From Amycolatopsis palatopharyngis (lineage in GTDB: Bacteria > Actinomycetota > Actinomycetes > Mycobacteriales > Pseudonocardiaceae): DNA of 64,000 nucleotides. Below, one piece after another: positions 23,049-43,249 of this stretch. Made by a program: the position numbers and the translations under genes. The stretch lies in NCBI RefSeq assembly GCF_003385185.1, contig NZ_PQHZ01000010.1:124001-188000 (forward strand), in the 5' to 3' direction. Numbering within the stretch: the stretch's first letter is position 1; the number at the start of each line of letters is the position of its first letter. The notes beneath the pieces were generated by a model. The model ran no database searches, was not told where the DNA came from, and saw only the letters and a program-made list of their open reading frames with translations.

Positions 23049-26000
23049 TCACCCACCCCCAATGCGGCGGCGCTTCGGCCGGCGCGGACCAGCGGAGAGG
23101 AAAGACTCGGCGAGCGCGCGCCATCCCGGAACATCCACGCCGCTCCGATCGTCCGTCCACACCAAACTGCCATTCTCACCGCCACCTTCCTGCAGTGGCA
23201 GGATTCCCTGCCCGGCATACCACGCCTTCTTCTTCTCCCAGCCGTGGCGGTACTTGGGGTCATGCAGGAGGCCGAGGTGCTCCCAGTAGACCGTGCGGCC
23301 GTCAGGTGCCTCGATGGTGAAGTCAGGCAGCCGGACCCGCCCGTCCGAGCCGGTGAGGCGTTTCTCGTAAAACCACGAGCTGCGGGCGAGCTCATTCAGG
23401 ATCTCCGCAATGATCACCTCATTTTTCGACCGCACCAGGACCCCGTTGCTGGTCAGGTGCACCAGGCTGGCGTCGAGTATGCCGAGGTCGTGGCCGTCCG
23501 GACTGACCGCCGGGCGCGGGTCGGCCGGGCGGACCAGGTCGGTGAACCGGCGGGCGGTGTCCGATCCAGTCGCGCGGGTAAGCATGATCAGATCGTCGAG
23601 CGGGCCTTCGTGGCATAGCACAATCCGGTCGGTCTGCCTGGTCAGCGCGGTGTAGAGCAGTTCCCTGGACAGCGCACGGGTGCCGGAGGGGACGACCAGG
23701 AAGACCCTGCCGAACTCGCTGCCCTGTGCCTTGTGCACGGTCAGCGCCCAGGCCAGCTCCACGCTGGCATCGTCGTCGCTGACCGCGTTGTTCATGGTTA
23801 TCCGCGTGCCCGGCTGGGTGGAGAACTCGACCTGCGTTTCCCATGGCGCTTTCTTGCCCTTGCCGGCGAGTTGACCGATGACCACACCGATCTCACCGTT
23901 GGCGACATAGCTCCTAGTCCTGCCCTGCTGGCCGGGTGCCCAGGATTTCAGCATCTGGTTGGCCAGGTTGACCACCTTGTCGCCTAGCACGATTTGCTCG
24001 CTACCAAGCGGTTTCGGCACGGACCGGTACCGGCTGGTGGCCTTCTTCAGCTCGAATTCCCGGTGTGTGAGCTTGAGGTGGCGGTTGAGCTGCACGGTGC
24101 CGTGTGCCCGGCCGCGCACCGGAGAGAGAATTTGCCAGTTCTCGCATTTCCCTGGCGCTTCCCGGTAGCTGACCCATTTGTCGACGGTCGCGCCGTAGGA
24201 CCTGGCGAAGCTGCGGCCCTCATCATCGGTCACCACATCAAGTTCGTCGCGCAGTACGTCGTCCATCACATTGGCGATTGTGCGGCCCTGCCATGGCACG
24301 GCGGCCAGGGTAGGCATCGTGATGCCGCCGCGCAGGCGGTCCCACACTTCTTCCTCGCCGTCCGAGATCTCGTCGCCGCTGAACCACTGAGCCAGCATCA
24401 GGTCGTCGCGTACATCTCCCCGCTGCCGATTGAGCACGGTCAGCTCCCCCCAGCCGGGTGCGACGCGCGGCCAGGAACCGTCGTGGTCCACGCGAGCGGC
24501 GCGTTCCAAATCCACGAATGGACGGCCGGCGCCGATCGGCGGCAACTGGCGCGGGTCACCGACTAGGACGAGTCGGTCCGGCGGGTGCAGCGCGTCGAGC
24601 AACGCGTCGAGCATGTCCTCGGTCAGCATGGACGCCTCATCCACGATGACCGTACCGACCCTGGGTGCCTTTCGCGCGTCGTCACCGAGAGCGAGGTATC
24701 GGCCGGTCTCCCCATCGTAGCGTTTGGTCCTGCCGAGGAAGCTGGCAAGTGTCTGGGCCGGGCTCTTGGCTTTCTTGGTCAACTGGACGGCCGCCTTGCC
24801 GGTTGGCGCGAGCAGTAGCACACCCTTCCGCTGGATTTCCGGCCGTTTGACCAACGCCTCGACGAGTGTCGTTTTCCCAGTGCCTGCGCGGCCATTCAGC
24901 AGCGTGACCCGGGAGGCATACATTTCCGCCAGCGCGGCGCGCTTTTCTTCCCTGGCTCGCTGTTCCTGATGGTCGTCGGCGTGGATCGGGCCGAGAATCT
25001 CGTCGATTCCCGCTGACAAGTCACTCGGTACATTGTGTCGGCCCAACTTGTGCAGGTAGTCAAGGAACTCGGTGATACTGAAACCTCGGATGATGGCGGA
25101 CCGCAGCTTGTAGGCAGGGCTGCTATCCGCGAGCGTCGTTCGCGCGAGCGGAGCCTTGTCCGGGTCCGGGTCGTTGTCGAGGTCGTCCGGCGCCAGGCCC
25201 AGGCCGGTCAGCACGGTCGGAGTGAGGTCGAACGGCTGGGCGACCGCCAGCCCGCGCACCCGCTCGATCGCCTGCGATACCGGTAGCAGCGTATGCCCGT
25301 CCGCTTCCGCGGCGGCAATCACCCAGGTCAGCGCGGCCTCGATCCGTCGGGGGTCGATGACGTCGGCGAACGACTCGTCGATCGGCAGCGGGTGGCGGGC
25401 GGCCAGCGCCGGTTCCGGGAAACAGCCCCGGTCAACGACAGTGAACGGGATCGGCGCCGCACCATCCACCGTGGACGTGACGAGGAGGTACGGGTTGCGC
25501 AGCAGGTCGGTGTACTCGATCGGGATGGCGGTCGTCCGGTCAATGACGCGCCCGACCTCATCCTTGGTCAGCTCGAACCGGGCGAGCAGCCGCAGCAGCC
25601 GCTTGGTTTTCGCGTCGAGCGAGCGCCAGATCCGCCGACGCGGCTCGGTGGCCAAGTACCGCACGATGTCCGGCGCCGGCCGGTCTTCGAGGGCGGCCAC
25701 CAACACGTCCCACGGGTCGCCGCCGTCCGGTGTGGCCCCAGCGATGGTATGCGCGGCGAACGTCGGGTGCGCCCAGCCGAGTTGCGGTAGCACGGCAGGC
25801 AGGCCGGGCGAAGGACCGCGGCGTCGCCAGGTGAGACCGAGCTGAGTGTCGAGCCATGTGACGGCGGACGCCGGCACGTTGACACCGAGTTCGACGGCGG
25901 CGTCTGCGGCCCGGCGGAGCTCGAGCAACGCCGCCACCGCGATGTCGTCCGAGACGTGCTCGGTGACGTACGAGAATTCGCGGTGCTGTTCCGGCGCAAC

Positions 26001-26795
26001 CGGCAGCGCCGTCGACACGTCGGTGCCCGTCTCGGCGAGCGCAGCGAGTTCCTGGAGTGGAAGCAGGATGCCGTCCGTGCCGTCCGGACGCAGCGTGTGG
26101 CTCAGCGCGGTCTCCCACATGTGGTTGGGGAACGCGGTGTTGCCGGGCCAGCGGCCAGGCAACCGGAGATCGGCGACGGTCGCCGCGCCAACGAGTATTT
26201 TGCCTGCGTCCTCGAACGGGGAATGCTTGAGGTAGAAGAAGACCAGCGACTGCCCTTTATGGACATCGCGGAAGAACTCGGTCATCGCGGCCTGCTGGTT
26301 GTCCCCATGCAGCACCCACGGCGGCTCGAAGCCCAGCGCTTCGATGGCCTCCTGCTCGGCGTCCGCGCTGTAGTCGTCAACCTTGAAGTACGGCAGCACG
26401 CCTTCGTTCAGGTTCGCTCGGTGCAGCCAGAAGTACGGCGACACCGCAACCGACCACGGCGGCACGTGGATTGCTTTCTCCTCGATGCCTTGCAGCGCTG
26501 ACGTCCACCGGTACGGATGCTTCTTGGTGACGAGTTGAGCGTGCGCGCTGAGGAACGTACTCCGCTCGGCGACGCACGGCACGCTGTCCGCAGGCAAGTC
26601 GGCGATCGGTATTCCGGCGTTAGCGACCTCGAATTCGTCCCGCCGGTTCTCTCCGATGTTCTTCAGTAGCAGGCACGAACTGTTACCCAGCGGATCGCGG
26701 CAGACCGACCCGTCCCAGCCGTTGTCATGCCACGGTACTCGCACGGAGAGATGCTGCACATAGACCACGCTGTCCTCCTTACTCTGCAGGTCCAA
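23049..26795 (-). CDS. RecD-like SF1 helicase fused to a C-terminal nuclease domain
   Basis: 1,248 residues. The first 600 match nothing I recognise. An SF1 helicase follows: Walker A LLNGRAGTGKTTLVEAL (about 630-646), VIVDEASMLTEDMLDAL (Walker B), LVLVGDPRQLPPIG, LNRQRGD, and ELAWALTVHKAQGSEFGRVF with YTALTRQTDRIVL, the RecD/UvrD C-terminal motifs. The last 120 residues look like a PD-(D/E)XK nuclease: SKNEVIIAEILNELA, then RLPDFTIEAPDGRTVYWEHLG, where Glu, Asp and Glu could bind metal but the usual Lys is replaced. It lies 102 bp after the Toprim gene and is the last gene of the minus-strand block. It probably unwinds and cuts DNA ends for the condensin-like system (inference). Confidence 0.85.
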   Translation of the reverse strand: MDLQSKEDSVVYVQHLSVRVPWHDNGWDGSVCRDPLGNSSCLLLKNIGENRRDEFEVANAGIPIADLPADSVPCVAERSTFLSAHAQLVTKKHPYRWTSALQGIEEKAIHVPPWSVAVSPYFWLHRANLNEGVLPYFKVDDYSADAEQEAIEALGFEPPWVLHGDNQQAAMTEFFRDVHKGQSLVFFYLKHSPFEDAGKILVGAATVADLRLPGRWPGNTAFPNHMWETALSHTLRPDGTDGILLPLQELAALAETGTDVSTALPVAPEQHREFSYVTEHVSDDIAVAALLELRRAADAAVELGVNVPASAVTWLDTQLGLTWRRRGPSPGLPAVLPQLGWAHPTFAAHTIAGATPDGGDPWDVLVAALEDRPAPDIVRYLATEPRRRIWRSLDAKTKRLLRLLARFELTKDEVGRVIDRTTAIPIEYTDLLRNPYLLVTSTVDGAAPIPFTVVDRGCFPEPALAARHPLPIDESFADVIDPRRIEAALTWVIAAAEADGHTLLPVSQAIERVRGLAVAQPFDLTPTVLTGLGLAPDDLDNDPDPDKAPLARTTLADSSPAYKLRSAIIRGFSITEFLDYLHKLGRHNVPSDLSAGIDEILGPIHADDHQEQRAREEKRAALAEMYASRVTLLNGRAGTGKTTLVEALVKRPEIQRKGVLLLAPTGKAAVQLTKKAKSPAQTLASFLGRTKRYDGETGRYLALGDDARKAPRVGTVIVDEASMLTEDMLDALLDALHPPDRLVLVGDPRQLPPIGAGRPFVDLERAARVDHDGSWPRVAPGWGELTVLNRQRGDVRDDLMLAQWFSGDEISDGEEEVWDRLRGGITMPTLAAVPWQGRTIANVMDDVLRDELDVVTDDEGRSFARSYGATVDKWVSYREAPGKCENWQILSPVRGRAHGTVQLNRHLKLTHREFELKKATSRYRSVPKPLGSEQIVLGDKVVNLANQMLKSWAPGQQGRTRSYVANGEIGVVIGQLAGKGKKAPWETQVEFSTQPGTRITMNNAVSDDDASVELAWALTVHKAQGSEFGRVFLVVPSGTRALSRELLYTALTRQTDRIVLCHEGPLDDLIMLTRATGSDTARRFTDLVRPADPRPAVSPDGHDLGILDASLVHLTSNGVLVRSKNEVIIAEILNELARSSWFYEKRLTGSDGRVRLPDFTIEAPDGRTVYWEHLGLLHDPKYRHGWEKKKAWYAGQGILPLQEGGGENGSLVWTDDRSGVDVPGWRALAESFLSAGPRRPKRRRIGGG

Positions 26796-26897: not shown

Positions 26898-28157
26898 CTA
26901 CAGGAGCGGCTGCAGGGTGGCGCGTGCTGGGGCTTCTTGCTCGACGGCGTACCCGCGTGCGAGGCAACTGCGCGCGAAATCTCCCACCGCGTCGGTGCGT
27001 TCCGCCGTTGTGGCGATTCGGTCGCGGGTCAGGGTGCTGAAGGGTTCGCCCTGATCGTGCTCACCCGCGCCGATGTCGACGATTACGCGGCGGGTGTCCG
27101 GCGGGAGATGGTCGTGGATTCGTGCCGCGATGCGGATTCCGCCGAGGTCGGCATCGGGACAGATCACAATGTCGTTGACGCCGATGGCGGCTTGGTTGAT
27201 CAGGTCGAGGAGCGGGTCTGGTGGCTGGCCGTGGCACCAGATCACGGCGGTGTCGGGGTGGGTGTCGCAGATGGTTTCGGCTGCCTGCCGGTTTTCGATG
27301 ATCAGCAGGACGCGGGTGCCTCGGGCGACCTCGAGGGTGATGGTGCGGTGGGCGGGTAGTCGGATGTCGTGTGGGCCTGGCCATCCGGTCCAGTCCAGGG
27401 TTCGTCCGTTGTGGTGGGCGCGGATTGGGCCGCCGAGGCCGATGTAGGGGTTGCGGTTGACGCCGAGCAGGACGAGCGCCTCGGCCTCGAAGCCGGCGTC
27501 GGTGAGAAGCCGGGGCAGGTCTTCGCGGGCCTTGGTGTTCTTGGCGTGGTGCTGTACGAACGCCCGTGGTCCGTCGTAGCTGCGGTCGGCGACGAGGTCT
27601 TCGGCGGCGCGAACAAGCCATACGAGCCGGGGGTCTGTGGTGGGCGCGGTCAAGGCTGCAGCGACCCCTGGCCATTCACCGATGAGGAGGTCGCGGAGTT
27701 CTCCAGCACGGTCGAGCAGCTCTTGTCGGGCGGCCTGTCGTGTTTGCTTCCCGGTGGCGTGATGATCGGCAAGGTCAGGGTGGGGGTTCCAGCCTCGGGG
27801 CGGATGGCAGATCGTGCCTGCGCGGTAGTCGTGCTCCAGGGCCACGCATCCGGCACGGGCCAAGCCGAGCGCCACGTCGCTGGCGCGATCGTGGAGTTTG
27901 GTCGTGATGGTGTTCCATCGGCGAGGTGCGCTCGTGGCCCAGTTCCAGTCTGCGTCGCTGACGAGTCCGGCTGGCCGCTGTGGTGCACTGGGCGGATGCG
28001 CACGCAGGTGTACTCGCCGGACTTTGGGGCGGCCGGCTCGGTCGTGGTCGAAGGTGCCGTCGGCGTGTGTTGGTTGTGCGTAGGCACGGAGTCCGTCGGG
28101 CACGCCGGGGTGCCCGGGCATCGGGAATTCCCCTGTTGCACGGGATGGTTCGGTCAC
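26898..28157 (-). CDS. jetD: JetD-like Toprim nuclease of a Wadjet-related system
   Basis: 419 residues. The C-terminal Toprim domain has RVLLIIENRQAAETIC, with the conserved Glu near residue 286, and IVICPDADLGGIRIAARIHD, the DxD near 333. That is the arrangement of JetD/topoisomerase-VI-like subunits that cut plasmid DNA in Wadjet. The N-terminal 200 residues should carry the winged-helix/arm part but are not recognisable by eye. The start overlaps the SMC gene stop by 4 bases. With the SMC and winged-helix genes this makes a nuclease-armed condensin. The exact Jet subtype (DUF2220 or DUF2399) cannot be fixed from sequence reading alone. Confidence 0.72.
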   Translation of the reverse strand: MTEPSRATGEFPMPGHPGVPDGLRAYAQPTHADGTFDHDRAGRPKVRRVHLRAHPPSAPQRPAGLVSDADWNWATSAPRRWNTITTKLHDRASDVALGLARAGCVALEHDYRAGTICHPPRGWNPHPDLADHHATGKQTRQAARQELLDRAGELRDLLIGEWPGVAAALTAPTTDPRLVWLVRAAEDLVADRSYDGPRAFVQHHAKNTKAREDLPRLLTDAGFEAEALVLLGVNRNPYIGLGGPIRAHHNGRTLDWTGWPGPHDIRLPAHRTITLEVARGTRVLLIIENRQAAETICDTHPDTAVIWCHGQPPDPLLDLINQAAIGVNDIVICPDADLGGIRIAARIHDHLPPDTRRVIVDIGAGEHDQGEPFSTLTRDRIATTAERTDAVGDFARSCLARGYAVEQEAPARATLQPLL

Positions 28158-31100
28158 GCCACGTCCTCATCGGAGTCGTCGTCATCGGCGATGCCGATGA
28201 CGGGTCGGTAGGAAGCCAGCCACTCCTGCAGTAGTTCGACGCGGGCACGGTTGGCTTCGTCTCCGACGATCACGGGCGCCTCGTTGTACGCCATGCTGTC
28301 GGAGCGGCGGCGGAGTTTGATGTAGAGCCCGGATGCTTCGATGGCGTAGCGCTCCATGTCGTCTTGCAGGGCACCGATAACGGTGATGTTGCGGTCCTTA
28401 CCGATTTGCTCGAAAAGCGCGACCGCCTCACGACGATGTTGCTTGCCGAGGTTGCGGCCGAGTTCATCGAGAACGAGCAGCAAGGGCCGGCTGCCTCCCC
28501 CAGCGAGTGCAGCGGCGCAGACCAACTTGACGGCCTTCTCGTCCATTTGGGCAGTGTTGCTGCGAAGGTTGTAGCCCGACATGCGTTGTCCCTCGGCGCG
28601 CCGCCATTTGGGTGTGACGGTCCACCGCCACGGCCGATCGGGTTCTGAGGGCGGCTCGGGTTCCGGGTAGTCCAAGCCCGCCCCGTAGCCGCCGTACCGC
28701 TCGTCGAGGCGGTCGAATTCCTCGCTGACTTTCTTGAGCTTCGCCTTGATCCCCAAGGCGAGCGAAGCTCGGTGTGCCCGGGAGGTCTGCTCGGCCTCGC
28801 TCAAGCCTTGCCGGGCCGCCTCGAGGTCGCTGGTTCGCTGCGCACGCTGGGCAGTGATTTGCTGCTGCTGGTAAAGGTCGTGCTTTTCGGTCTGAGTCAG
28901 GTGGGTGCGCAGCGCACGGATGAGGGCGGGAACCAGCGAGATTCGAGTGTCCAGGCCGCCGCGTTGCCAGCGTTGTTCGATCAGAAGTTCCCGGATCTCC
29001 GCGGGCATCTCGTCGTGTGGTGTGCCCTCGGGGAAACAGCGTCGGACGACCTCGTTGACCTGATAGCACGCTTCTTCGTTCCACGCCGCGGTAGTGCGGG
29101 CCTGCTGCTCAGCGTCCAAGGCCAGCAGGAACCGTTGCGCCGACTGGGGCGAGTCACCCCAGGTTGCCTCCCGACCGGGCAGGTCCAGGGCCAGTCTCTC
29201 GTTAGTGAGCTTCGTCTTGGTCTTGTCTTGTTCGGCCAACTCGCCCTCAAGGCGCCGTTTGGCACCGCGCAGGTTCGCGATCCGCTCCTCGCGTGCGCGC
29301 CCCGCACCCAGCGCGTCGGTGTAAGCGACGCGGGCGGCCTCCAGCGTCGGCTTCAGCGCCTCGCGTCGTTCCTCGCGCTTTTGGTTGGCAGCCCGTAACT
29401 CGGACATCTTCAGTTCGGTCGCCTGCGCCTCCTCGCCAGCCACGGCGGCTTCGGTGCGGGTTGTTGCCCGGGACAACGTGTGTCGAGCTGCGGCGAGGCG
29501 CTTCTCGGCTTCGGTGAGAAGGTCGACCTTCGCGCGGTGTTCGGCGCGGGCGGCGGCGATGCGTGCGGCTCGTCCGGTGAGCGGTTCGCCAAAGTCGCCC
29601 AGCACAATCACTCCGGCGGCCACGTCGACCTCCGCAGGGCCGGTACCAGCGCGATCGGCGATCGCGGTCAAGAACGTGGTGAGGTCGAACCTTGCGTCGG
29701 CGCTCGCGGGCAGGCTGGTGCCGGAGGCGGGCGCGTGAGTCCGGGGTGGGTCAGCGATGACCAGCGTTGCCCCTGGCCGCCCCGCCAGCTTTTCCTGGGC
29801 TTGCTCAGCATGCGTGCGCGATACCACGACAGCGCCGCGATAGGGCACGAGGCGGGGTTCCCAGCTGCGTCGCTGGTCGTGGTTGAGCTGGACGACATCC
29901 AACAACGCCGCAGCGGGGATGCCCTCCTCGCGCAGCGTCTGTAGCTCATCGGTGGCGACGTCGTCGCCGGATTCGGCGGCGGCCAGCAGCGCGTTTGCTT
30001 GTTTCTCGGCTTCTTCAGCGACGCCCTTGGCCCCGAGCGCCTGCTCCACGGCCGTGCGCGCAGCAATCTCCTCAGCATGGGCGGTTTCGACGCTGCGTCC
30101 GTCGGCACCGCGTGCCTTGTCCGACAGTGTCCGATGTTTGGTGGCCAGGTCTTCCAGGTTCTGGGCGGCGACCTGATGTTCGGTGTCCAGGCGCTGGTCT
30201 CGCCCGCTGAGTTCCTTCCAGCGCCCTTCGACCTCGCGGAAGTTCCGGTTGAACTCCTCGTCATCGGTCAGCCCGGAAAGGTCGTCCTCCAAGGTGTCCA
30301 ACTGGGACTGCAGTTCTTTGGCGCGAGTGTCGAGCGCGCCAAGCTCTTGGCGGATCTCTTCGGTGCGGGTGACCCCGTCGAGGAAGCGTCGGGCGCAGCG
30401 GGCCTGCCACGACGCGTTCGCGCTGCCCAGCAGGTGCCGAGCTTCGACGCGCTGGGCGATGCCAGCTTCGACGATCGCCATTTCGTGTTCCCAGCTATCG
30501 AGATCTTCTTTCGCATCGCGAACGTTGGTGCGGTGGGTGTGTTCGGCGGATCGGAGGGCTTGCTCTTGTTCGAGTTCGCGATCCAGCCCGGTCAGCGTGG
30601 CGATGGCGTCGAAGATCCTTCGGGGGTCCAGGTCATTGAGGGGTTGGGCGAGCAGGTTGGCCGCCGGACTGGAACGGACCGAGGTCGATAGAAAGGACAC
30701 GCAGCGCACGTGGCTGCCGTAGAGGACGGAGGTGAGCCGATTCGCGTGGAAGTCGGTGCGGCCGTTGCTTTTCGGGAGGGCGTCCCACAGTGCATCGACT
30801 CCCGCGGCACGTTCGGACTCGGTCGCGCCGTAGGGGACATAGAGCCCTTCGTGCCACCGGAGGTGCACGTGCGATGCTTTGCGGTTGATCCTCAGCCACA
30901 CGGTCAGGGCGCTGGCCGACAGCTCGTCGACCGTGTCGGCGCGGGGGTCAGCGAACACGCCGATCACATACCCCCAGTCGACGTTGGACCAGCGGCCTTC
31001 TTGCGCGGCAAGTTCGGCGGTGAACAGCAGCTCCGCCGCCCCGGCAGCGCCACTGGCCAGCCGCCATTGCTCATCGGCGTGCAGCAGGCTCACCGCGGCG

Positions 31101-31303
31101 ATCAGTGAGGATTTCCCGGCGCCGTTGGAGTCTTTCGGGCCTTGGCCCGCGACCGTGACCAGCCCCTGACTGACCATCGGTACCGGGTGCGTGGACAACC
31201 GGGAGATGTTGACGACCTGGACGCCGACCAGCACCCGCTCGCCGACAACGTCGAACGGCCCGGAATCGCCGCTCGCGGCAGGCCAGGTTCGGGCTGTGTT
31301 CAC
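28154..31303 (-). CDS. jetC: SMC-like ATPase of a Wadjet/MksB-type condensin
   Basis: 1,049 residues. The N-terminal ATPase half has LVTVAGQGPKDSNGAGKSSL (about 48-67, Walker A). Long charged coiled coils run from about 280 to 460 and 590 to 870. They are split by a compact hinge-like region (about 470-580) containing LVPYRGAVVVSRTHAEQAQE. The C-terminal half carries RPLLLVLDELGRNLGKQHRR (Walker B, about 940-960). The Walker A loop GPKDSNGAGKSS is longer than that of standard SMC or TIGR02680 proteins, so it is a divergent branch. Both ends overlap neighbours by 4 bases. It is expected to form a DNA-loop-extruding motor that detects small circular DNA (family knowledge). Confidence 0.82.
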   Translation of the reverse strand: MNTARTWPAASGDSGPFDVVGERVLVGVQVVNISRLSTHPVPMVSQGLVTVAGQGPKDSNGAGKSSLIAAVSLLHADEQWRLASGAAGAAELLFTAELAAQEGRWSNVDWGYVIGVFADPRADTVDELSASALTVWLRINRKASHVHLRWHEGLYVPYGATESERAAGVDALWDALPKSNGRTDFHANRLTSVLYGSHVRCVSFLSTSVRSSPAANLLAQPLNDLDPRRIFDAIATLTGLDRELEQEQALRSAEHTHRTNVRDAKEDLDSWEHEMAIVEAGIAQRVEARHLLGSANASWQARCARRFLDGVTRTEEIRQELGALDTRAKELQSQLDTLEDDLSGLTDDEEFNRNFREVEGRWKELSGRDQRLDTEHQVAAQNLEDLATKHRTLSDKARGADGRSVETAHAEEIAARTAVEQALGAKGVAEEAEKQANALLAAAESGDDVATDELQTLREEGIPAAALLDVVQLNHDQRRSWEPRLVPYRGAVVVSRTHAEQAQEKLAGRPGATLVIADPPRTHAPASGTSLPASADARFDLTTFLTAIADRAGTGPAEVDVAAGVIVLGDFGEPLTGRAARIAAARAEHRAKVDLLTEAEKRLAAARHTLSRATTRTEAAVAGEEAQATELKMSELRAANQKREERREALKPTLEAARVAYTDALGAGRAREERIANLRGAKRRLEGELAEQDKTKTKLTNERLALDLPGREATWGDSPQSAQRFLLALDAEQQARTTAAWNEEACYQVNEVVRRCFPEGTPHDEMPAEIRELLIEQRWQRGGLDTRISLVPALIRALRTHLTQTEKHDLYQQQQITAQRAQRTSDLEAARQGLSEAEQTSRAHRASLALGIKAKLKKVSEEFDRLDERYGGYGAGLDYPEPEPPSEPDRPWRWTVTPKWRRAEGQRMSGYNLRSNTAQMDEKAVKLVCAAALAGGGSRPLLLVLDELGRNLGKQHRREAVALFEQIGKDRNITVIGALQDDMERYAIEASGLYIKLRRRSDSMAYNEAPVIVGDEANRARVELLQEWLASYRPVIGIADDDDSDEDVA

Positions 31304-31971: not shown

Positions 31972-32519
31972 CGCGGCCCTTCCTCATCGGCGCGGCCGAC
32001 GTCGGCGGCGGAGGGCAACATCCGCCACAGCTCGCGCAGGGCGCTCAGCTCGGCGGATCCCCATGCCGCGACTCGCGGACCGAGCCGTACTGTCTGGCCG
32101 GGCTCGTCCCACAGCAGCCAGGCGGCGCCAGCCAGGCGCCGGATCGCCGCGAGCAAGGCCCGGTTGGAGGCGGCCTTGTCCCGGTTGGTGATCTCCCCGA
32201 ACACCGCTGCCACCTCATCCTTGGACGCGGGCACGCCTGGCCACATCGGTCCGGTCGGTTCCGCCCAGCAGCACCGCAGGCACGCGGCGAGCACACGAGC
32301 GGTGTCGTTGGGTTGTTCGACGGCAAGCGCTGGCAGCCCCAGCTCTTCCGACACGCTGTGTCGCGCGCCCTCGGGAACCACTGCCAGCAGCCACACCGCC
32401 GTGACTTCGGGCTCGACCAGGCGAAGCATTCCCGCTGGGAAGGCGCTGCTCGGTTCCACGCGCTGCGGGCCAGCGGCGCGGACGCGCGCCCACCACAGTG
32501 CCGTTTCCGCCTCGTTCAC
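31968..32519 (-). CDS. extra winged-helix-like subunit 2 of the condensin operon
   Basis: 183 residues from GTG 32519, which overlaps the upstream TGA (GTGA). The C-terminal half has a winged-helix look: SKDEVAAVFGEITNRDKAAS, NRALLAAIRRLAGAAWLLWD and QTVRLGPRVAAWGSAELSAL. I do not recognise a named family. Four-gene Wadjet operons have one KITE gene. Here this gene and the next one make two non-identical winged-helix subunits, reminiscent of Nse1/Nse3 in Smc5/6 (inference). A start at 32615 inside the upstream gene is open but has no SD advantage. Confidence 0.6.
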   Translation of the reverse strand: MNEAETALWWARVRAAGPQRVEPSSAFPAGMLRLVEPEVTAVWLLAVVPEGARHSVSEELGLPALAVEQPNDTARVLAACLRCCWAEPTGPMWPGVPASKDEVAAVFGEITNRDKAASNRALLAAIRRLAGAAWLLWDEPGQTVRLGPRVAAWGSAELSALRELWRMLPSAADVGRADEEGPR

Positions 32520-37000: not shown

Positions 37001-37069
37001 GGTGAAGTTGATTTCCTGCTCGGCGAGGTAGGAGCGCAGTCCGGTGAACTTCAGGGTCAGGGGCCTCAC
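34067..37069 (-). CDS. sbcC: SbcC-like exonuclease ATPase subunit (Rad50 family)
   Basis: 1,000 residues from GTG 37069, which overlaps the sbcD stop (GTGA). The ATPase halves have LMAVVGDTGAGKSSLLEALC (about 28-47) and, at the C-terminus, DVKTLSGGETFLASLALALA and VEALFLDEGFGSLD. Between them are long coiled coils broken by a zinc hook, GEPCPICVRPLP (about residue 466). This is the complete SbcC/Rad50 layout. With SbcD it opens hairpins and cuts protein-blocked DNA ends. The long open frame upstream of 37069 is spurious, as it overlaps sbcD. A house-keeping sbcCD elsewhere in the genome is not excluded; this copy lies inside a defence block. Confidence 0.93.
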   Translation of the reverse strand: MRPLTLKFTGLRSYLAEQEINFTDVDLMAVVGDTGAGKSSLLEALCFALYGGCTWDARGGKRLIADGGDGTLRVELTFQARGKTWRVTRTTSASNYPPSTHRLEGLDDNSVLDNSRSVDDAIRKLIGLDYAAFLKAVVLPQGRFQELLQTREADRTAILKNVLGLDQIAEVRRHTNGLHDRLQPLLHEVELRRASLLPDPAATIVDAGERLSVAQEQVQKLDRLKEVIAKARNAHDDAEGRASDHRTAAQQLTAKIPEDIDEQYGRLIELDIQLTDDINAVDSQLDQADSDEADLKAVLATADAAGTGITGVATALATLESLLDQIPGIDDEQRDHAEERATIDAERAVLNDRRSGQAELIAQAELAQTNAGIAETAHTDATEKLEQCRALLTEARRAVKAASTASETVNTHREELNKRTNEVAEAQRVVAQADEDFDKATARLEAVHRANAAAHAASASHPGEPCPICVRPLPDDFTAPTTAETKQATTARTSAQKHAKTSATKLAEAKESRKTAQTNVDEAIKALDTALSERGEAYQAIFAVLGDVNLDQDDEAILTAVHEAVGQTATAKETAAAEAKTAHDAMTNEIADLRHAERALADREAALAKAQRALSRRQEKITKAHDTLPEPYRVHTELTTAAIDRSKEKAQQRQAELEDVTVQLDAAHKQIKLLRGEKERLGRQHRTTVEQPATQLSQRIQALADQSLAAAQLTGLPAAQERPTPSTIAEDAEWARDVLAAVEAINQHCLREASIQDGLAATAQSDAATALASADIADDDTLATLLTEARADARVAERDRDKAIAQQPLCAELDTRISAAKPMVDSLRELGSLLADGKFLAAVVKRRQRALLGIASELLQSMTKDRFAFSDDFRIVDGHTGQPRDVKTLSGGETFLASLALALALVELTSRGGGRVEALFLDEGFGSLDTNILGDALEALTRQADGGRLVAVISHMRDVAENFDNVLMVTRSLGGSQARWLTPSERDQVVTDELTAGLLT

Positions 37070-38331
37070 CGTGACACCTCCGCGGCAACCGGAGCTCGGT
37101 CGGATTCCAGCGGGTCGGTGAGCAGCGATTCCTCTGGCATCACAGCGGGTTGTTGTTCTTCCACCGCTGTCAGCACCCTCGCGAATGTCGCCATGACGCG
37201 GTCGGCCGCGACCGTGGTGGTGCCCTGGTCTGCCAGGTAGTCGCGGAAGAGTTGACGCAGGTTGGGTTCGACGTCGGCGGCGACCGCGTCTTGGGTGAGG
37301 ACCTCCAGTTTCTGATCCGCGCATACCTCGTTGACCTGGAGGACGACGGCGTCTGGCAGAAGGTCGTCGACCAGCTCGGACAGGGCTGGGTGGTGCGTTT
37401 GTGTGTGCACGGTGACCTGGCACAGGTCCCGTCCGACCGACGGTGCGAGTACACGCAGATCGTCCAGGGTGCCCTCAAGCCGCCGCAGTTGCCGGCCACC
37501 GCTCAACCCGACGATGTCGATGTTGGCCTTCTGGCCGGGCCGGAGGTCGGCGAGGACGACGCTCTTGCGTTCCCCGGCTTCGCCGAAGTCGAGCTGGATC
37601 GGAGATCCGGCGTACCGGCCGGGAACCTGGGTGCCGGGCAACTTCTGGGGCTGATGGATATGGCCGAAGGCCGCGTAGTTGACCGCGGGCAGGTCCTCGG
37701 CGTTGGTGGCGTAGTAGTCCGAGGCGTGCACCGGGCGTTCGCTTCCGGCGAAGTTGGCGCCGCCGACGTGCAGATGCGCGGCGAACATCGCGATGTCACG
37801 GCGGTCGTCGAAGTCGCGCAGCAACTCTGCGGCCAGCATCCGCTCCATCCTGCCGATGCGTTCGGCATAAGCGGCGCGCCAGTGGTGGGGGTCGTCGAAA
37901 GCGTCGATGGCCCGGTTGGAATGCACGAACGGCAGAACCGCGAGGCGCAGCACGGTGTCGTCGGCTCCGTGGAATCGGAGGATCCCGCCCTGGTCGGGAT
38001 CGCGGGGTTTGTCGATGAAATGAATCCCGCTGTCGGGGCCAAGGAGTTGCGCGAAAAGCTGAAACAGCAGCGGCGAGTCATGGTTGCCGCACACGACGAC
38101 CACGGGCGCGACGGCCGCAAGCTCCTTGAGCACTGTGGTGGCTTTGCTCATGTCTGGATAGGACGGCCGGGCGTGGTCGAAGAGATCGCCTGAGTGCACG
38201 ATCAGTTCCGGCTTTTCGCTGCGGGCCACGGCGATGATCTCGGTCAGAACAGTATCGTGGTCAACGGAGCGGGGTTCGTTGTAGGTGACCCGACCGAGGT
38301 GCCAGTCGGATACGTGGAGAACTCTCATCAT
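37066..38331 (-). CDS. sbcD: SbcD-like nuclease (Mre11 family)
   Basis: 421 residues with the calcineurin-like metallophosphoesterase motifs in order: LHVSDWHLGR (about 5-14), ELIVHSGDLFDHARPSY, VVVCGNHDSPLL, IAMFAAHLHVGG and YAAFGHIHQPQKLPG. The C-terminal capping domain has about 150 residues. It is the Mn-dependent nuclease partner of SbcC. GTGA overlap with sbcC shows coupling. Upstream, 133 bp separate it from the SF1 helicase gene on the same strand. Confidence 0.94.
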   Translation of the reverse strand: MMRVLHVSDWHLGRVTYNEPRSVDHDTVLTEIIAVARSEKPELIVHSGDLFDHARPSYPDMSKATTVLKELAAVAPVVVVCGNHDSPLLFQLFAQLLGPDSGIHFIDKPRDPDQGGILRFHGADDTVLRLAVLPFVHSNRAIDAFDDPHHWRAAYAERIGRMERMLAAELLRDFDDRRDIAMFAAHLHVGGANFAGSERPVHASDYYATNAEDLPAVNYAAFGHIHQPQKLPGTQVPGRYAGSPIQLDFGEAGERKSVVLADLRPGQKANIDIVGLSGGRQLRRLEGTLDDLRVLAPSVGRDLCQVTVHTQTHHPALSELVDDLLPDAVVLQVNEVCADQKLEVLTQDAVAADVEPNLRQLFRDYLADQGTTTVAADRVMATFARVLTAVEEQQPAVMPEESLLTDPLESDRAPVAAEVSR

Positions 38332-38464: not shown

Positions 38465-39781
38465 CTATGCCGCCGCTACTCGATGTGCGCGCAGATGCGC
38501 GAGCATTGCTTGGTTGGCCTCCCAACCGTCGGGGAATTTCGCTGGAACGCCCAGGTGCATGGGTTCGCTGGGCGGGTGCGCGTCGAGCAGGTCCTGGATG
38601 CCGGCTCTGGCCACGACTATGCAGGCGTGCCGATGTCGGGAGGTCAGGACGCACAGGCGGCCTGATTCGAGGTGGAATGCGGTCGCATCGCGCCGCCCTG
38701 ACAGCGGGTGCAGCACCAGAACCAGGTCATATTCACTGCCCTGCAGGCGATTGGCCGTGTCAACCTTGATCGCCTGGCCTCCGCGCTCGTGCAGGGTGTG
38801 CCGTATCGCCGCGACCTGATCGCGGTGGGCGGCCCCGATCGCGATACGCCCGGCTGTGACAGGGATGCCGTCCGGGCTGCGCTCGGAGTGAGCCGTGGCC
38901 CCGCGTTGGATCACCCGCAGGGCCAGATCGGTGATCGCGTAAACCGCCTGGGTGTCGGTGCGGAGGGTGTGCCGGGCGGGTAGCTCGTGTAGTGCCCAAC
39001 CGGTCCGGGCGGCAATCTCCAACGTGTCGTCGATGGGGCCGCCGAATCCTCGGGTTTGGTACGCCAGCTGTCGTTGATCGGCCGTGGTGGCGGAACGGAA
39101 GCCGGTGAACGGGTAGAACGCCTCTGACACCGGTGGCGCTGCCGACGCGGCCAGACGCCAGGACAGGGGCAGCTGGTGTACGGGCAGGTCGGGGTTGTTG
39201 CGGAGCATCGCGGCGACCGCGCTCTGCATGGGATCCCAGGTCAACCCGGTCCACCGGTCGACCTCGACGGTCGAGAACGGGTCCAGCTGACCGGGGTCTC
39301 CGACGAACAAGGCGTGCTCGAACCGCGCGGCGACGCGCAGGAGCATGTCCGAGCGCATCTGGTACGCCTCATCGATGATCGCCCACGGCCACGGGCCGTC
39401 CGCGACATGCACCCATTTCGCTGCCGTGCCGATGGTGATCTGCGGGGCGTGAAGGTCCTGGACTCGGTCGGCGACGCTGACATTGGGGTGGGTGACGCGG
39501 GTCGTCGGGACGTAGCCGTGCGCGGACAGCCTGCCGACGCGCACCGTGGGAGCCTCACGTGACATCCGGTCGACCAGGTCGTCGACTTGCTCGTTGGTCT
39601 GGGCGATGACCATCACCGGCTCGCCCCCGTGCGCGATCTGCGTCGCGGCCCTGACCACGAGGGTTGACTTGCCCGCGCCGGGCGGGGAGTCCACGACGAC
39701 GCCGAGGTGGCCGCGGGTGGTGAAGTCGGCTAATGCGGCGGTGATGACCCGTTCAACCTCGGCGGTGGCGTCGGCGGTCAC
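38465..39781 (-). CDS. SF1 DNA helicase/AAA ATPase
   Basis: 438 residues from GTG 39781 (GGAG five bases upstream, overlapping the previous stop by 4). Walker A is VVVDSPPGAGKSTLVVRA (about 28-45), motif II PWAIIDEAYQM (about 135), motif III FVGDPGQLDPF, and motifs V-VI VDTANRLQGSEYDLVLVLHP and LCVLTSRHRHACIVV. The protein is a minimal SF1 helicase with little outside the two motor domains. Last of a four-gene overlapping set, it probably works with the PD-(D/E)XK protein two genes upstream in an AddAB-like manner (inference). Confidence 0.85.
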   Translation of the reverse strand: MTADATAEVERVITAALADFTTRGHLGVVVDSPPGAGKSTLVVRAATQIAHGGEPVMVIAQTNEQVDDLVDRMSREAPTVRVGRLSAHGYVPTTRVTHPNVSVADRVQDLHAPQITIGTAAKWVHVADGPWPWAIIDEAYQMRSDMLLRVAARFEHALFVGDPGQLDPFSTVEVDRWTGLTWDPMQSAVAAMLRNNPDLPVHQLPLSWRLAASAAPPVSEAFYPFTGFRSATTADQRQLAYQTRGFGGPIDDTLEIAARTGWALHELPARHTLRTDTQAVYAITDLALRVIQRGATAHSERSPDGIPVTAGRIAIGAAHRDQVAAIRHTLHERGGQAIKVDTANRLQGSEYDLVLVLHPLSGRRDATAFHLESGRLCVLTSRHRHACIVVARAGIQDLLDAHPPSEPMHLGVPAKFPDGWEANQAMLAHLRAHRVAAA

Positions 39782-41277
39782 GACCACTCCTCCTTTGCGT
39801 CGTCACTGGTCGGGGTCGGTTGGACGGGCGGGCCGCCGTGGGTCCATGGTGTGTTCTCCCGAGCGGGGAAGGTGCCGCGTGGTTGGTAGGAGTCGGTGAG
39901 GGTGCTGAAGCACACCCGGTCCCCGACCGTCGGCATGGTCCCTGCCGGTGCTGTTCTGCCGCGCCCCATGCCGCCGGCGAGTTCCAGCGTGATCTCCAGG
40001 CCGACCGGTATCTCGGCTATCGCGACGATCTCGGCTCGCTGCCGTGGTCGCGCTTGGTCGCTCACGATGGCGTCGCCGGGGACCAGCCGCACGGGATCCG
40101 GAGTTGACACGGTGATCAAGGGGCGGAGCACCGCGCTGCGGCCGGTGCCGACCCGTCGGTTCGGCACCGCCGAGGTGACCGTTCCCGCGAAGGCGTCACC
40201 GGCGAGCCGGTATTCCGCCATGACCAGCGGGTCATCGAAAGCCCGTTGCGCGTCGTAATCGGCCTGGTGCCGTTCAAGCTCGTTGAGCCGCCTCGCCGCG
40301 GCCACCGCACTGTCCCGCTTGGGCTGCGGGTAGCCGCCGTTCGTGAGGTAGGTGTGGAACTGAAGATAGGCGTCCTTGTCCTGGTCCCAGCGGGTCGCGA
40401 CATGGTCTCCCGGCGGCAGTGCCCCGAGCCGGTCGACCGCTTGCCACATCAGGTGCCAGGTGGGCTCGAGCTGGCCGCGCAGCGCGGCCTCGAGCCTGGT
40501 CATGGCGCGTTGCTGCCGTTCCGGGTCACCGGATGCGCGGTCATATTCGGTGATCCCCGGCTCGAGCACCTCCCGGTCGAAGGTCGGGTCGGTGGCCGGT
40601 CCGGCGGGCGGGCACACCAAAGGATCCTCCGCCGCGAGCGCGGTCTGCGCTCCGTCCGAACCCGGCGGCGGCGCGATCCAGCCCAGCAGGGAGGCGAGGT
40701 TGCCGTCTTCGATCGTGCTTTGCCCGGTGGCCCAGTTCCGGGCCAGGGCGTCCGTGGCGGCCATCAACAGCGACGAACCGGGGTGCTCCGCTCGCTCCGT
40801 CAGAAATGTGAGCCACTTGCCCAACGTGGGCACGGAGACCTCGACCGCGTACGGGCCGGTCGTGGAGCGAAACCGGGTGGAACGCCCGAACAACCGGAGA
40901 AAGTCGATACCCGCGCGGTTGGGCACCCATACCTGCGGCGCGTCGGCGATACGAGGCTTGGCCACTCCGCCGGGCTGGCTGACGACCTCCGTCGTGCTGG
41001 CGAAGGTCGCCACATAGTGCAGCAGGACCAACGCCAACGAGTGCGCGAACTCGAAACGCTGCCCGCGGTTGCGGGGCTGCGGAACGATCAGCAGTCGGGG
41101 CGTGTCACGGTCCCTGCCGACCATGGCGGCCAGGGGCGCGTTCGCCTCGCCAGCCATCGCCAGCGGCACACACACCAGCGGCCGTGCGCTGACGTGGACG
41201 TGGCGGACGGTGGTGATCGGCTGGGCGCAGCCGCGCTGGACCGCGTGTGCCCTCGCCAACGAAGTAAGCGTGCTCAT
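39778..41277 (-). CDS. unknown protein coupled to helicase and nuclease genes
   Basis: 499 residues from ATG 41277, in an ATGA overlap with the upstream gene; its own stop overlaps the helicase start. No P-loop, nuclease or DNA-binding motif is evident. The N-terminal half contains FEFAHSLALVLLHYVATFAS and WVPNRAGIDFLRLFGRSTRF. The middle is helical with many Trp and Arg. The C-terminal 120 residues look like small beta barrels (LVPGDAIVSD, IPVGLEITLELAG, VGDRVCFSTL). A role as scaffold or DNA-recognition subunit is possible. I do not recognise the family. Confidence 0.75.
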   Translation of the reverse strand: MSTLTSLARAHAVQRGCAQPITTVRHVHVSARPLVCVPLAMAGEANAPLAAMVGRDRDTPRLLIVPQPRNRGQRFEFAHSLALVLLHYVATFASTTEVVSQPGGVAKPRIADAPQVWVPNRAGIDFLRLFGRSTRFRSTTGPYAVEVSVPTLGKWLTFLTERAEHPGSSLLMAATDALARNWATGQSTIEDGNLASLLGWIAPPPGSDGAQTALAAEDPLVCPPAGPATDPTFDREVLEPGITEYDRASGDPERQQRAMTRLEAALRGQLEPTWHLMWQAVDRLGALPPGDHVATRWDQDKDAYLQFHTYLTNGGYPQPKRDSAVAAARRLNELERHQADYDAQRAFDDPLVMAEYRLAGDAFAGTVTSAVPNRRVGTGRSAVLRPLITVSTPDPVRLVPGDAIVSDQARPRQRAEIVAIAEIPVGLEITLELAGGMGRGRTAPAGTMPTVGDRVCFSTLTDSYQPRGTFPARENTPWTHGGPPVQPTPTSDDAKEEWS

Positions 41278-42401
41278 GCCGCACCACCAAGACATTCGCG
41301 GCGCAAATGCTCGGCCATCCGCAACACATGAGCCGCCTCTCGCTCATGCTCGTCAGGCGCAAGTGCATCCGTGGCCAACCCGATCGCCGCGGCGACGGTA
41401 TCGATCCCACCCAGGTTTTCCTGGACGGACCTCCCGAGCGCGGCGGTGTGTCCGCGAGCGCCAGCCCGGCAGAAGTAGGCCATCTCGCAGGTATCCAGAC
41501 ACTCTGGCGCATAACGCGCCTCGATCTGGTCCAACGCCGCACACAGTTCGTCAACCGACCGCGTCGCCTCGCCCTCCTCGTCACGCAGCAAGTCCAGGGT
41601 CAAGCCGACAGGCAGCGTCGCGACGAGGGTGCCAACGTCGGCCAGCCGGGCGAGTTGACGCCGTACCACGGTCAGCTGCTTGCGCACGTCGATCAGCGCG
41701 GCGGTCGGCCGGTTGGAGAAATCCTCGGGGCACACCAGGAACACCTCGTGCGAGACCAGGGCCGGGTCGACCCCGAGCTGCTCCAAGAGCTGGCGCATCG
41801 CCAGGACGTACACGGCGGACTGGATTGCCGCCGCGCCCACCTTGTGGGAATCGGCCCGGCGATCGATCACCGGGAAGGACTTGATCTCCACGACATGGAA
41901 GCGGTCCCGCAGCCGAAACGCGACGAGATCGGGCTCCAGGTACACCTCTCGGCCGCCGATGTTCATGCGCAGCAACGGGTGATCGAATAGGGTGCCGGCG
42001 TCCTGGTCGGAGCGGGCGGCGTGCGCCAACAGCTGGCGGGATCGCCGGTAGCGCGCTTCGAGCGTCTCGTGTCCGGCCACGCTGTTGAGGTCGTCGTAGG
42101 ACACCTCGGGAAGCGGCAGGTCGAGGTGCTTCCGCAGCAGTCGCAGCAATTCGGCGCAGCCGTTGGCCTTGACCTGTGCCTCGAAGGCGTTACCTCGGGC
42201 GATGGCGAAGCTGGACATGCCGAACGCGGCGGGATAGCCGATGTGCTCGGCCAGTGCCTGTTTGTCGATGGAGGCTGCGTCGAGAACGCTCCTGCGGGCG
42301 CAGCCGGGATTGCTGGTTAACGCGGCGATCGTCCGGGCATTGTGCTTCTTCGGCTCAGCCGACCCGCGGATGGCGTTCAGACGGGTGTCGGTGTTGGTCA
42401 A
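41274..42401 (-). CDS. PD-(D/E)XK nuclease with probable Fe-S staple (Cas4/AddB-like)
   Basis: 375 residues. The nuclease core shows EVYLEPDLVAFRLRD then FHVVEIKSF (about 150-173), a standard D...ExK active site, with QSAVYVLAMRQLLEQLG following as the conserved Q-x3-Y helix. One Cys near the N-terminus (Cys34, NPGCARRSVL) and a C-terminal CLDTCEMAYFC cluster (about 298-309) match the Fe-S staple of Cas4, Dna2 and AddB. Such proteins are 5'-3' or 3'-5' single-strand exonucleases. It lies in the four-gene overlapping set with an SF1 helicase, suggesting an end-resection machine. Confidence 0.82.
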   Translation of the reverse strand: MTNTDTRLNAIRGSAEPKKHNARTIAALTSNPGCARRSVLDAASIDKQALAEHIGYPAAFGMSSFAIARGNAFEAQVKANGCAELLRLLRKHLDLPLPEVSYDDLNSVAGHETLEARYRRSRQLLAHAARSDQDAGTLFDHPLLRMNIGGREVYLEPDLVAFRLRDRFHVVEIKSFPVIDRRADSHKVGAAAIQSAVYVLAMRQLLEQLGVDPALVSHEVFLVCPEDFSNRPTAALIDVRKQLTVVRRQLARLADVGTLVATLPVGLTLDLLRDEEGEATRSVDELCAALDQIEARYAPECLDTCEMAYFCRAGARGHTAALGRSVQENLGGIDTVAAAIGLATDALAPDEHEREAAHVLRMAEHLRRECLGGAA

Positions 42402-42443
42402 CTATCTCTTCCTTCGCGGGGGAAGCGCGGGCAGGAAGTCCGC

Positions 42444-43241
42444 TCAGTTTTTGGTAGTGGCGCGCGATACGACCTTCAGGGCCGAGCCGAACAGCTGATG
42501 GATCTCATCGAGTTGTGTCCGGGCTCGGGTGGCTGCCACCTCGCGGTGTGCTTGGTCGGCTTCATGGTGTATCGCTAGTTCTGCTCGCGCCGCATCAGCG
42601 ACCCTCGCTGGCTTGATCGCATCGAACGACTCGGCGGCACCGGGAATGTTCGTGGCGAACCGCCACAACAAACTCAATGCGGGCAACGGCGGCTCGCTCA
42701 TCCTGTCAACCTGTTCCGACAGTCCGATGGCTGCGAGGAGGAAGTCGACGCGCGCGCTGAGCGGGCCGATGACTCTGCGAGGCATGGGCCAGGTCGAGAC
42801 CGCTAGCAGCCCACGGGCAGGCACCAGCCGATCCGCGGTCAACGCGCTGCACAAGTAGTACGGGCGGGCGTGCGGCGACGATCGGAACGAGCGTTCCTCG
42901 TCCCGCCGCAGGCTGGTCAACCGCGCCCCGGCCATCTCGCCCCCGAAGAACGCGCTGTGCACGGCGACGATCAGTTTGGGCGCGGACGGCACGCCGAGCA
43001 GGGTGAGTGCCCGGTGAACCTGGTCGCGGATCGGCAGCAGAGACCCCGCAGGTCGAACCGGGTCCGGCTCGGGCGTGGGCGTGGTCATGGCCGCGAGGGC
43101 TTCGTCCCAAGTGCGTTCCGCGCGGCGCAGGCCGGCCCGCAGTTCGCGCGCTCGCGCGGGGTCGCCGGACATGGCCGCCCGGCGCACCTCAGTCCGTAGA
43201 CCGTCGATGCGACGCTCGAGTTCCTCTAGGGGCTCCGCCAT
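42444..43241 (-). CDS. unknown coiled-coil-start protein, first gene of the helicase-nuclease set
   Basis: 265 residues from ATG 43241 (MAEPLEELERRIDGLRTEVR), beginning with an amphipathic helix of about 55 residues that is probably a coiled coil. The rest has no catalytic motif I can identify. LIVAVHSAFFGGEMAGARLT and ARPYYLCSALTADRLVPARG are the most distinctive segments. It is separated from the nuclease gene by 42 bp. Three CAGTA repeats lie immediately upstream in the divergent promoter region, so this gene's promoter is probably a control point for the whole block. The open frame upstream to 43286 runs through those repeats. Confidence 0.7.
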   Translation of the reverse strand: MAEPLEELERRIDGLRTEVRRAAMSGDPARARELRAGLRRAERTWDEALAAMTTPTPEPDPVRPAGSLLPIRDQVHRALTLLGVPSAPKLIVAVHSAFFGGEMAGARLTSLRRDEERSFRSSPHARPYYLCSALTADRLVPARGLLAVSTWPMPRRVIGPLSARVDFLLAAIGLSEQVDRMSEPPLPALSLLWRFATNIPGAAESFDAIKPARVADAARAELAIHHEADQAHREVAATRARTQLDEIHQLFGSALKVVSRATTKN

Positions 43242-43249
43242 GGACAAGA

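What the first reader, a model, noticed from the sequence alone, without database searches (positions are those of the whole stretch)
23049..43241. Twelve-gene, one-strand supercluster joining condensin, SbcCD, helicases and nucleases
Seen: twelve minus-strand genes with almost no gaps. They encode a coiled-coil protein, a PD-(D/E)XK Fe-S nuclease, an unknown 499-residue protein, an SF1 helicase, SbcD, SbcC, a kleisin-like protein, two winged-helix proteins, an SMC, a Toprim nuclease and a RecD-like helicase-nuclease. Known: Wadjet uses SMC, kleisin, KITE and Toprim to cut small circular DNA; SbcCD processes ends; AddAB-like pairs resect. Inference: this is one integrated machine that cuts foreign circles and then degrades them. 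I know of no described system with this content.
Basis: partly seen in the sequence, partly recalled or inferred. Interest (0 to 1): 0.85.

Follow-up and report, generated by a model that had tools for sequence, protein, structure and literature searches.

The report
Plasmid-cutting SMC complex with end-resection cassette
A soil bacterium carries, side by side, what looks like a new kind of DNA-ring-cutting SMC complex and a six-gene set resembling the eukaryotic Mre11-Rad50/Dna2 machine that chews DNA ends; the same end-chewing set often sits next to ring-cutters of every known type in related bacteria, which suggests that the two work together.

Summary
The twelve-gene minus-strand array is real. 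It holds three units. (1) A-F: coiled-coil protein, Fe-S PD-(D/E)XK nuclease (B), beta-barrel/stalk protein (C), SF1B helicase core (D), SbcD, SbcC. B-C-D have the parts of Dna2, in Dna2's order, split over three genes; one relative has C and D fused. (2) G-K: kleisin-like, two small KITE-like, SMC and JetD-like Toprim genes with 4-bp overlaps; Wadjet-like, but outside types I-III. (3) L: candidate defence helicase PDC-S68, without the others in 5 of 5 other class genomes.

A-F was found in 24 other loci. Of 23 with usable flanks, 15 have a Wadjet nearby: type I (5), II (5), III (3), G-K type (2), against 2 of 80 loci that have C but no SbcD. Wadjet types are scattered over the SbcD tree; sister cassettes carry different Wadjets in the same slot. 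The mechanism (Wadjet makes ends, A-F processes them) is inferred. Seven searches of the held papers showed no description.

The parts
42444..43286 (-). A: 280-aa protein with N-terminal coiled coil (by eye; ATG at 43241 also possible); no family
   Evidence: found ahead of B-C-D in most loci
41274..42401 (-). B: Fe-S PD-(D/E)XK nuclease of the RecB/Cas4/AddB/Dna2 kind
   Evidence: PDDEXK_1 E 1.4e-3; kept in at least 95% of 25 sequences: C34, C301-x3-C305-x5-C311, G70, E74, E156-P-D158, E172-x-K174, Q194-x3-Y198
39778..41295 (-). C: 505-aa protein; C-terminal part = stalk plus beta-barrel as in Upf1/Dna2-like helicases, N-terminal part resembles a DNA-polymerase exonuclease-region fold
   Evidence: AlphaFold2 pLDDT 88.7; Foldseek/VIA-align hits to IGHMBP2, SETX, Sen1, Dna2; fused to D in G533
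38465..39787 (-). D: SF1B (Upf1-like) helicase core without its own barrel/stalk
   Evidence: AAA_11/AAA_12, IGHMBP2 in PDB 7.7e-6, helicase motifs kept in at least 95% of 24 sequences from residue 31 on
37066..38331 (-). E: SbcD (Mre11-like) of a clade tied to A-D
   Evidence: TIGR00619 over cut-off; 17 of 17 other genomes with a hit at E <= 1e-70 have A-D beside it, G559 only A-C before its contig ends
34067..37069 (-). F: SbcC (Rad50-like), GTG start at 37069, 4-bp overlap with E
   Evidence: TIGR00618 3e-56, below cut-off; start; zinc-hook CPIC, LSGGE and Walker B seen in the sequence
32516..33751 (-). G: kleisin-like protein (411 aa from GTG 33751)
   Evidence: alignment A3; weak AF2 model (pLDDT 58) whose best Foldseek hit is a MukBEF chain (E 5e-3)
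31968..32519 (-). H: first small KITE-like protein (183 aa); KITE by size and place only
   Evidence: present between G and I in 20 of 20 complete G-H-I-J loci
31300..31971 (-). I: second small KITE-like protein (223 aa); KITE by size and place only
   Evidence: Pfam GntR 0.054 only
28154..31303 (-). J: SMC-type coiled-coil ATPase, divergent from JetC types I-III
   Evidence: invariant GPKDSNGAGKSS and LDELGRNLGK; no JetC model match at E 0.1; hhalign to type I JetC 30% probability
26898..28157 (-). K: JetD-like Toprim nuclease, 4-bp overlap with J
   Evidence: PF09983 23.0 bits, PADLOC JetD1 1.9e-7; relatives in the same slot in G429 and G355
23049..26795 (-). L: RecD2-like helicase, candidate defence protein PDC-S68; probably an independent neighbour

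Best explanation
A-K is an extended Wadjet. G-K is a five-gene Wadjet-like SMC complex (kleisin, two different KITE-like subunits, SMC, Toprim nuclease) that recognises and cuts small circular DNA. A-F is an accessory DNA-end-processing cassette: E-F (Mre11-Rad50 type) captures and opens ends, and B-C-D, a Dna2-like nuclease-helicase split over three subunits (with A as partner), unwinds and degrades the strand. Wadjet turns a circle into a linear molecule with ends; the cassette attacks free ends, whether made by Wadjet or brought in by linear invaders that Wadjet cannot see. L is a separate neighbour. Shown: gene content, the recurrent A-F unit, its excess beside Wadjets of all types, the Dna2-like parts list and one C-D fusion. 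Inferred: that B-C-D assemble, that A-F acts after the cut, that G-K cuts circles, and the two-KITE architecture.
For: 24 other A-F loci; 15 of 23 usable ones have a Wadjet nearby: type I L077, L078, L083, G398, G570; II G101, G249, G492, G339, L152; III G243, G437, G390; G-K type G429, G355. Control: 2 of 80 loci with C but no SbcD. JetA follows D on the same strand with type I in three loci (L077, L078, G398) and type II in three (G249, G492, G339); sister SbcDs G339 and L078 carry different Wadjets. Wadjet labels are scattered on the SbcD tree (16 changes for all labels, shuffled mean 17.9). 17 of 17 other genomes with this SbcD at E <= 1e-70 have A-D beside it. Order nuclease - barrel/stalk - helicase is Dna2's (PMC4716839, passages); C's barrel/stalk matches IGHMBP2 Z 9.1, SETX 8.5, Sen1 8.2, Dna2 7.5. 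C and D are one 933-residue frame in G533, 1 of 118 stretches with both.
Against: 8 of 23 A-F loci show no Wadjet, one of them sits beside Shango genes; most loci with C lack SbcCD. Wadjets are common in actinobacteria (42%) and favour Streptomyces chromosome ends (PMC10482375, passages), where several A-F loci also lie, so part of the excess may be shared location. Controls had 10-kb flanks and come mostly from other genera. No expression or interaction data. Foldseek E-values for C stay above 0.001, and unrelated barrels follow at Z 6-7. Linear ends escape Wadjet itself, so a hand-off must be indirect. Kleisin and KITE calls are weak.
Confidence: 0.58

Rival explanations
1. Complementary but unlinked weapons: A-F is an anti-linear-DNA defence of its own (DNA-end sensing by Mre11-Rad50, degradation by the Dna2-like trio) that travels with Wadjet because the two cover linear and circular invaders; no hand-off between them.
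For: Linear plasmids evade Wadjet (PMC10586767, passages); 8 of 23 A-F loci show no Wadjet and one lies beside Shango; types I-III and G-K are exchangeable beside it.
Against: Wadjet is the neighbour seen again and again, other systems singly (other systems were not searched for systematically); the slot after D held by two Wadjet types suggests co-expression.
Confidence: 0.3
2. Insurance: A-F repairs host chromosome breaks or protects linear replicon ends when Wadjet misfires, rather than destroying invaders.
For: The set A-D without SbcCD lies among ordinary chromosomal genes shared between related genomes, as a repair system might; several A-F loci lie near contig or plasmid ends, in G429 and G355 near both ends of a single-contig chromosome.
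Against: A-F itself is rare (11 of 256 genomes of one genus) and its neighbours are often defence genes; the window locus is not known to be near an end.
Confidence: 0.15
3. A defence island: independent systems (A-F, G-K, L) that happen to be stacked on one strand.
For: The window also holds Avs2-like, viperin-like and nSTAND3/PDC-S73 genes and a type III restriction system; modules occur apart; A-L as a whole seen once.
Against: 15 of 23 against 2 of 80; the G-K type recurs near A-F in G429 and G355.
Confidence: 0.22

Closest known systems
Wadjet / JetABCD (MksBEFG, EptABCD)
   Same: SMC ATPase, kleisin-like and small partner genes plus a JetD-like Toprim gene in one tightly overlapping operon
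   Different: two different small KITE-like genes instead of one; G, H, I match no Jet model and J none convincingly; accessory A-F cassette beside it
Dna2 nuclease-helicase (eukaryotes)
   Same: Fe-S PD-(D/E)XK nuclease, beta-barrel on a stalk, SF1B helicase core, in that order
   Different: three separate proteins here (C and D fused in one relative, G533); C has an extra exonuclease-fold-like N-terminal part; Dna2's OB domain was not looked for
SbcCD / Mre11-Rad50
   Same: E and F keep the phosphoesterase, Walker, signature and zinc-hook motifs (seen in the sequence, motifs recalled)
   Different: a distinct clade found beside A-D in 17 of 17 other genomes with a strong hit
PDC-S68 (PADLOC candidate)
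   Same: L matches along its whole length (1356 bits)
   Different: nothing notable
AddAB / AdnAB / RecBCD
   Same: nuclease plus helicase that resects ends
   Different: D is closest to Upf1-like SF1B helicases, not the UvrD-like kind; only one helicase; the nuclease is a separate protein

Membership tests
Wadjet | SMC ATPase subunit (JetC) | tested here: inconclusive
   Walker A and B invariant in 10 J sequences, but no JetC model hit at E 0.1 for the window's J, hhalign 30% to type I JetC; J of G429 gives JetC3 1.2e-4
Wadjet | kleisin subunit (JetA) | tested here: inconclusive
   No Jet model, hhalign 0.1%; low-confidence model matches a MukBEF chain best by Foldseek (E 5e-3), MukF Z 9-10 level with designed helical proteins
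Wadjet | KITE subunit (JetB) | tested here: inconclusive
   Two small proteins H and I in this place; no Jet model match and no convincing PDB match
Wadjet | JetD-like Toprim nuclease in the operon | tested here: met
   JetD_C 23.0 bits over cut-off 22, JetD1 1.9e-7; partner genes in G429 and G355 JetD1 8.7e-16 and 5.9e-17; 4-bp overlap J/K
Wadjet | ATP-dependent cleavage of small circular DNA | not testable with these tools
   needs biochemistry or transformation assays
Dna2 | Fe-S PD-(D/E)XK nuclease | tested here: met
   B: four cysteines and nuclease motifs kept in at least 95% of 25 sequences
Dna2 | beta-barrel on stalk next to an SF1B helicase core | tested here: met
   C 316-474 matches IGHMBP2, SETX, Sen1 and Dna2 at Z 7.5-9.1; D core matches IGHMBP2 7.7e-6; C-D fused in G533. 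Moderate evidence: Foldseek E above 0.001
Dna2 | all in one polypeptide | tested here: not met
   B, C and D are separate genes in the window; of 118 stretches with C and D only G533 has them in one frame, and no B-C fusion was seen
Dna2 | 5'-3' helicase and ssDNA nuclease activity | not testable with these tools
   -
SbcCD | Mre11-type phosphoesterase and Rad50-type ATPase with zinc hook | tested here: met
   TIGR00619 over cut-off; TIGR00618 3e-56 though under its cut-off; CPIC hook, LSGGE in sequence
PDC-S68 | full-length match to PADLOC model | tested here: met
   PDLC05065 1356 bits, residues 11-1232

The most novel reading that the evidence does not exclude
A-F is a general Wadjet partner: a bacterial Mre11-Rad50 plus trans-split Dna2 resectosome into which Wadjets of types I, II, III and a new two-KITE type plug as exchangeable sensor-cutters, so that sensing, cutting and degrading of foreign DNA form one pathway that mirrors eukaryotic end resection.
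Probability: 0.4. Interest if true: 0.9.

Novelty: new variant of a known kind. Interest (0 to 1): 0.8.

Why it matters
The passages I read do not say what becomes of DNA after Wadjet cuts it. A dedicated end-processing cassette linked to every Wadjet type would make that directly testable, would give a bacterial model with the parts of the Mre11-Rad50/Dna2 resection pathway, and adds a Wadjet-like core with two small partner genes. The nuclease-free G-J set, complete in 20 genomes of two families, may be an undescribed chromosomal condensin.

Tried and rejected
Rejected: AddAB/RecBCD-like pair (D is Upf1-like). L as part of the machine (none of the other eleven beside it in G252, G219, G132, G276, G214). 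G-K as a plain type I-III Wadjet. K as a fixed partner of G-J: absent beside G-J in the 20 complete loci of f21 and f18, and JetD_C was found in only 2 of 14 f21 genomes, elsewhere on the genome. F as Lamassu LmuB (8e-18, weaker than SbcC 3e-56). The N-terminal part of C as an active exonuclease: not tested; I saw no DxE in the aligned strand by eye.

Led nowhere: PDB profile searches with J, G, H, I and C; K in plasmids and J of G429 in plasmids: no match; L in plasmids gave 284 records, 5 of them covering 80% or more, the listed rest partial helicase matches. JetD of L078 was found in 9 plasmid records, of which only 2 (L077, L078) are among the 3 records with C: many Wadjets do without A-F. 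Structure of G too weak to settle the kleisin. VIA-align lists for G hold designed helical proteins with equal Z, so MukF is not secured. Papers: searches listed nothing that I recognised as A-F, split B-C-D or a two-KITE Wadjet; I saw listings and starts of abstracts for these, and passages only of PMC10586767, PMC4716839, PMC10482375 and PMC12904381. Supplements were not read; most subscription-journal papers are not in the library.

Weaknesses: Wadjet detection in the 80 controls was by tblastn with type I-III and G-K queries at 1e-6, the type III queries being a partial JetC and a JetD only, so remote Wadjets may be missed on both sides. Wadjet types rest on PADLOC for G101, G249, G243 and one gene of L152, on similarity to these or to L078 for the others, and on annotated names (type recalled) for L077 and L078. 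G559 was left out of the ratio (4.3-kb contig); G395 and L110 end soon after SbcC and were kept as misses. L077 and L078 are close relatives, so events are fewer than loci. L152 and L159 carry SbcD of another clade; without them it is 14 of 21. Fifteen further SbcD hits between 1e-40 and 1e-70 were not read for A-D. (no J in ten genomes) has no positive control of its own; the same query found 24 genomes. The shuffle test asks only whether labels cluster. The 11-of-23 count was made by hand.
Full report
Observation. Twelve minus-strand ORFs fill 23049-43286. Families: L RecD2-like/PDC-S68, K JetD-like Toprim, J SMC-like, E SbcD, F SbcC, D SF1 helicase, B PDDEXK_1 (weak); A, C, G, H, I without a convincing family. 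Start-site inspection gives four blocks: A-B-C-D; E-F; G-H-I-J-K with 4-bp overlaps at every junction; L. The window is a defence island: Avs2-like, viperin-like and BrxH-like genes, an nSTAND3 protein (PDC-S73) and a type III restriction-modification pair flank the array.

G-J on their own. A search of 296 genomes of the class with J found 24, the window's included. Around 20 of them G-H-I-J is complete and in order: 14 genomes of one family (f21) and 6 of another (f18, Streptosporangiaceae by contig matches), with no hit to K, L or A-D in the stretches read; in 5 of the 6 f18 loci an opposite-strand SbcCD lies several kb away. In f21 the flanks are ordinary chromosomal genes shared between genomes. 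JetD_C was found in 2 of those 14 f21 genomes, elsewhere on the genome. So G-J can live without a nuclease beside it. K beside J was seen in the window, as a remnant in G122, and in G429 and G355 (below).

A-D and A-F. C was found in 48 of 296 class genomes, the window's included. A scan of named genome contigs with C kept the best 80 of 346 loci; most have B, C and usually A and D with no SbcCD. Seven have SbcD-SbcC directly after D, five of them of the window's clade. Two Streptomyces plasmids have sbcCD divergent from A-D, with annotated Wadjet genes after D. SbcD hits at E <= 1e-70 came from 17 genomes other than the window's (one search used the SbcD of G101), and in 17 of 17 A-D lies beside it, G559 only as far as C where its contig ends. 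None of ten genomes tested that hold C has J.

The Wadjet link. Reading the flanks of the 24 A-F loci: 15 of 23 with usable sequence have a Wadjet nearby. Type I: L077, L078, L083, G398, G570. Type II: G101 (JetA2 3e-166, JetB2 9e-105, JetC2 0, JetD2 9e-118), G249, G492, G339, L152. Type III: G243 (JetC3 4e-175, JetD3 3e-104), G437, G390. G-K type: G429 and G355, where G-H-I-J lies on the other side of a three-gene insert from SbcC (about 4 kb) and the gene overlapping J is a JetD relative (8.7e-16, 5.9e-17) that resembles K (4e-6 and 9e-5 in a six-sequence comparison). Eight have none found: L081, L082 (Shango genes instead), L092, L110, G533, G410, G395, L159. Control: of 80 distinct loci with C but no SbcD, 2 (L090, L155) show a Jet hit. 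Fisher p is about 1e-10, or 4e-7 if only hits within 10 kb of C count, 11 of 23. On the SbcD tree the labels are scattered (16 changes, shuffled mean 17.9, as low in 23 of 200); the SbcDs of G339 and L078, 92% identical, are followed, behind the same D, by type II and type I. The Wadjet is therefore exchanged while the pairing stays. Caveat: Wadjets occur in 42% of actinobacterial genomes and favour Streptomyces chromosome ends (PMC10482375, passages), and several A-F loci lie near ends.

What B-C-D is. C gave a confident model (pLDDT 88.7). Residues 316-474 match the stalk and barrel of IGHMBP2 (Z 9.1, 128 residues, 4.5 A), SETX (8.5), Sen1 (8.2) and Dna2 (7.5, 97 residues, 2.5 A); residues 29-300 resemble DNA polymerase chains (Z 9.2, 188 residues), which from memory is the exonuclease region. 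Foldseek E-values stay above 0.001 and unrelated barrels follow at Z 6-7, so this is moderate evidence; but eight of the ten rows at ranks 2-11 are IGHMBP2, SETX, Sen1 or Dna2. D holds the helicase motifs from residue 31 on and has no barrel of its own; B holds the Fe-S cysteines and nuclease motifs. In G533 C and D are one 933-residue frame, the only such case among 118 stretches with both, which ties barrel and core together. Dna2 is built as nuclease, barrel on a two-helix stalk, helicase (PMC4716839, passages): the gene order B, C, D. I infer a trans-split Dna2-like enzyme beside an Mre11-Rad50 pair.

What G is. The G model is weak (58); Foldseek ranks a MukBEF chain first (E 5e-3, none under 0.001) with four more MukF or MukBEF chains in the top eleven; VIA-align gives MukF Z 9-10, level with designed helical proteins. 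Kleisin is likely, not shown. H and I are taken as KITE-like from size and place.

Mechanism. Wadjet cuts circles but not linear DNA, and linear plasmids escape it (PMC10586767, passages). Enzymes of the A-F kinds act on DNA ends (established for Mre11-Rad50 and Dna2). I propose that A-F processes ends made by the linked Wadjet or brought in by linear invaders. Which of the two dominates is open.

Noticed in passing
window 14781-22438 and 43947-54032: Defence island: Avs2-like (18428-22438 +), viperin-like (16979-18031 +), BrxH-like fragment (14781-15788 -), nSTAND3/PDC-S73 (43947-46232 -), type III R-M (49516-54032 -).
   Followed up: partly
L002-L020, L028-L069: G-H-I-J without nuclease in 20 complete loci of two actinomycete families, in f21 in a shared chromosomal setting: a possible undescribed housekeeping condensin with two small partner genes.
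   Followed up: partly
L268:13429-16230: Natural fusion of C and D in one 933-residue frame in G533.
   Followed up: partly
G429 and G355 (L272-L275): SbcD of the A-F cassette occurs near both ends of the single 8.5- and 10.7-Mb contigs, as if in terminal inverted repeats.
   Followed up: no
L269, L270, L273, L275: Four A-F loci (G533, G410, G429, G355) share, next to sbcC, a three-gene set that looks like a Tn5053-type transposase, AAA partner and a third gene (label recalled, no call).
   Followed up: no
L082:4364-7949: Shango SngB and SngC lie directly ahead of A-F in Amycolatopsis pretoriensis, same strand.
   Followed up: partly
L077:208-2251: sbcC and sbcD of the WAC00288 plasmid are broken while A-D and the Wadjet look intact.
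   Followed up: no
L235:14434-17550: A Cas3-like protein (Cas3e 3e-162) lies downstream of the A-F/type II Wadjet locus of G249.
   Followed up: no
L086, L087, L088, L146: In some loci C and D are separated by 1-7 kb of other sequence.
   Followed up: no
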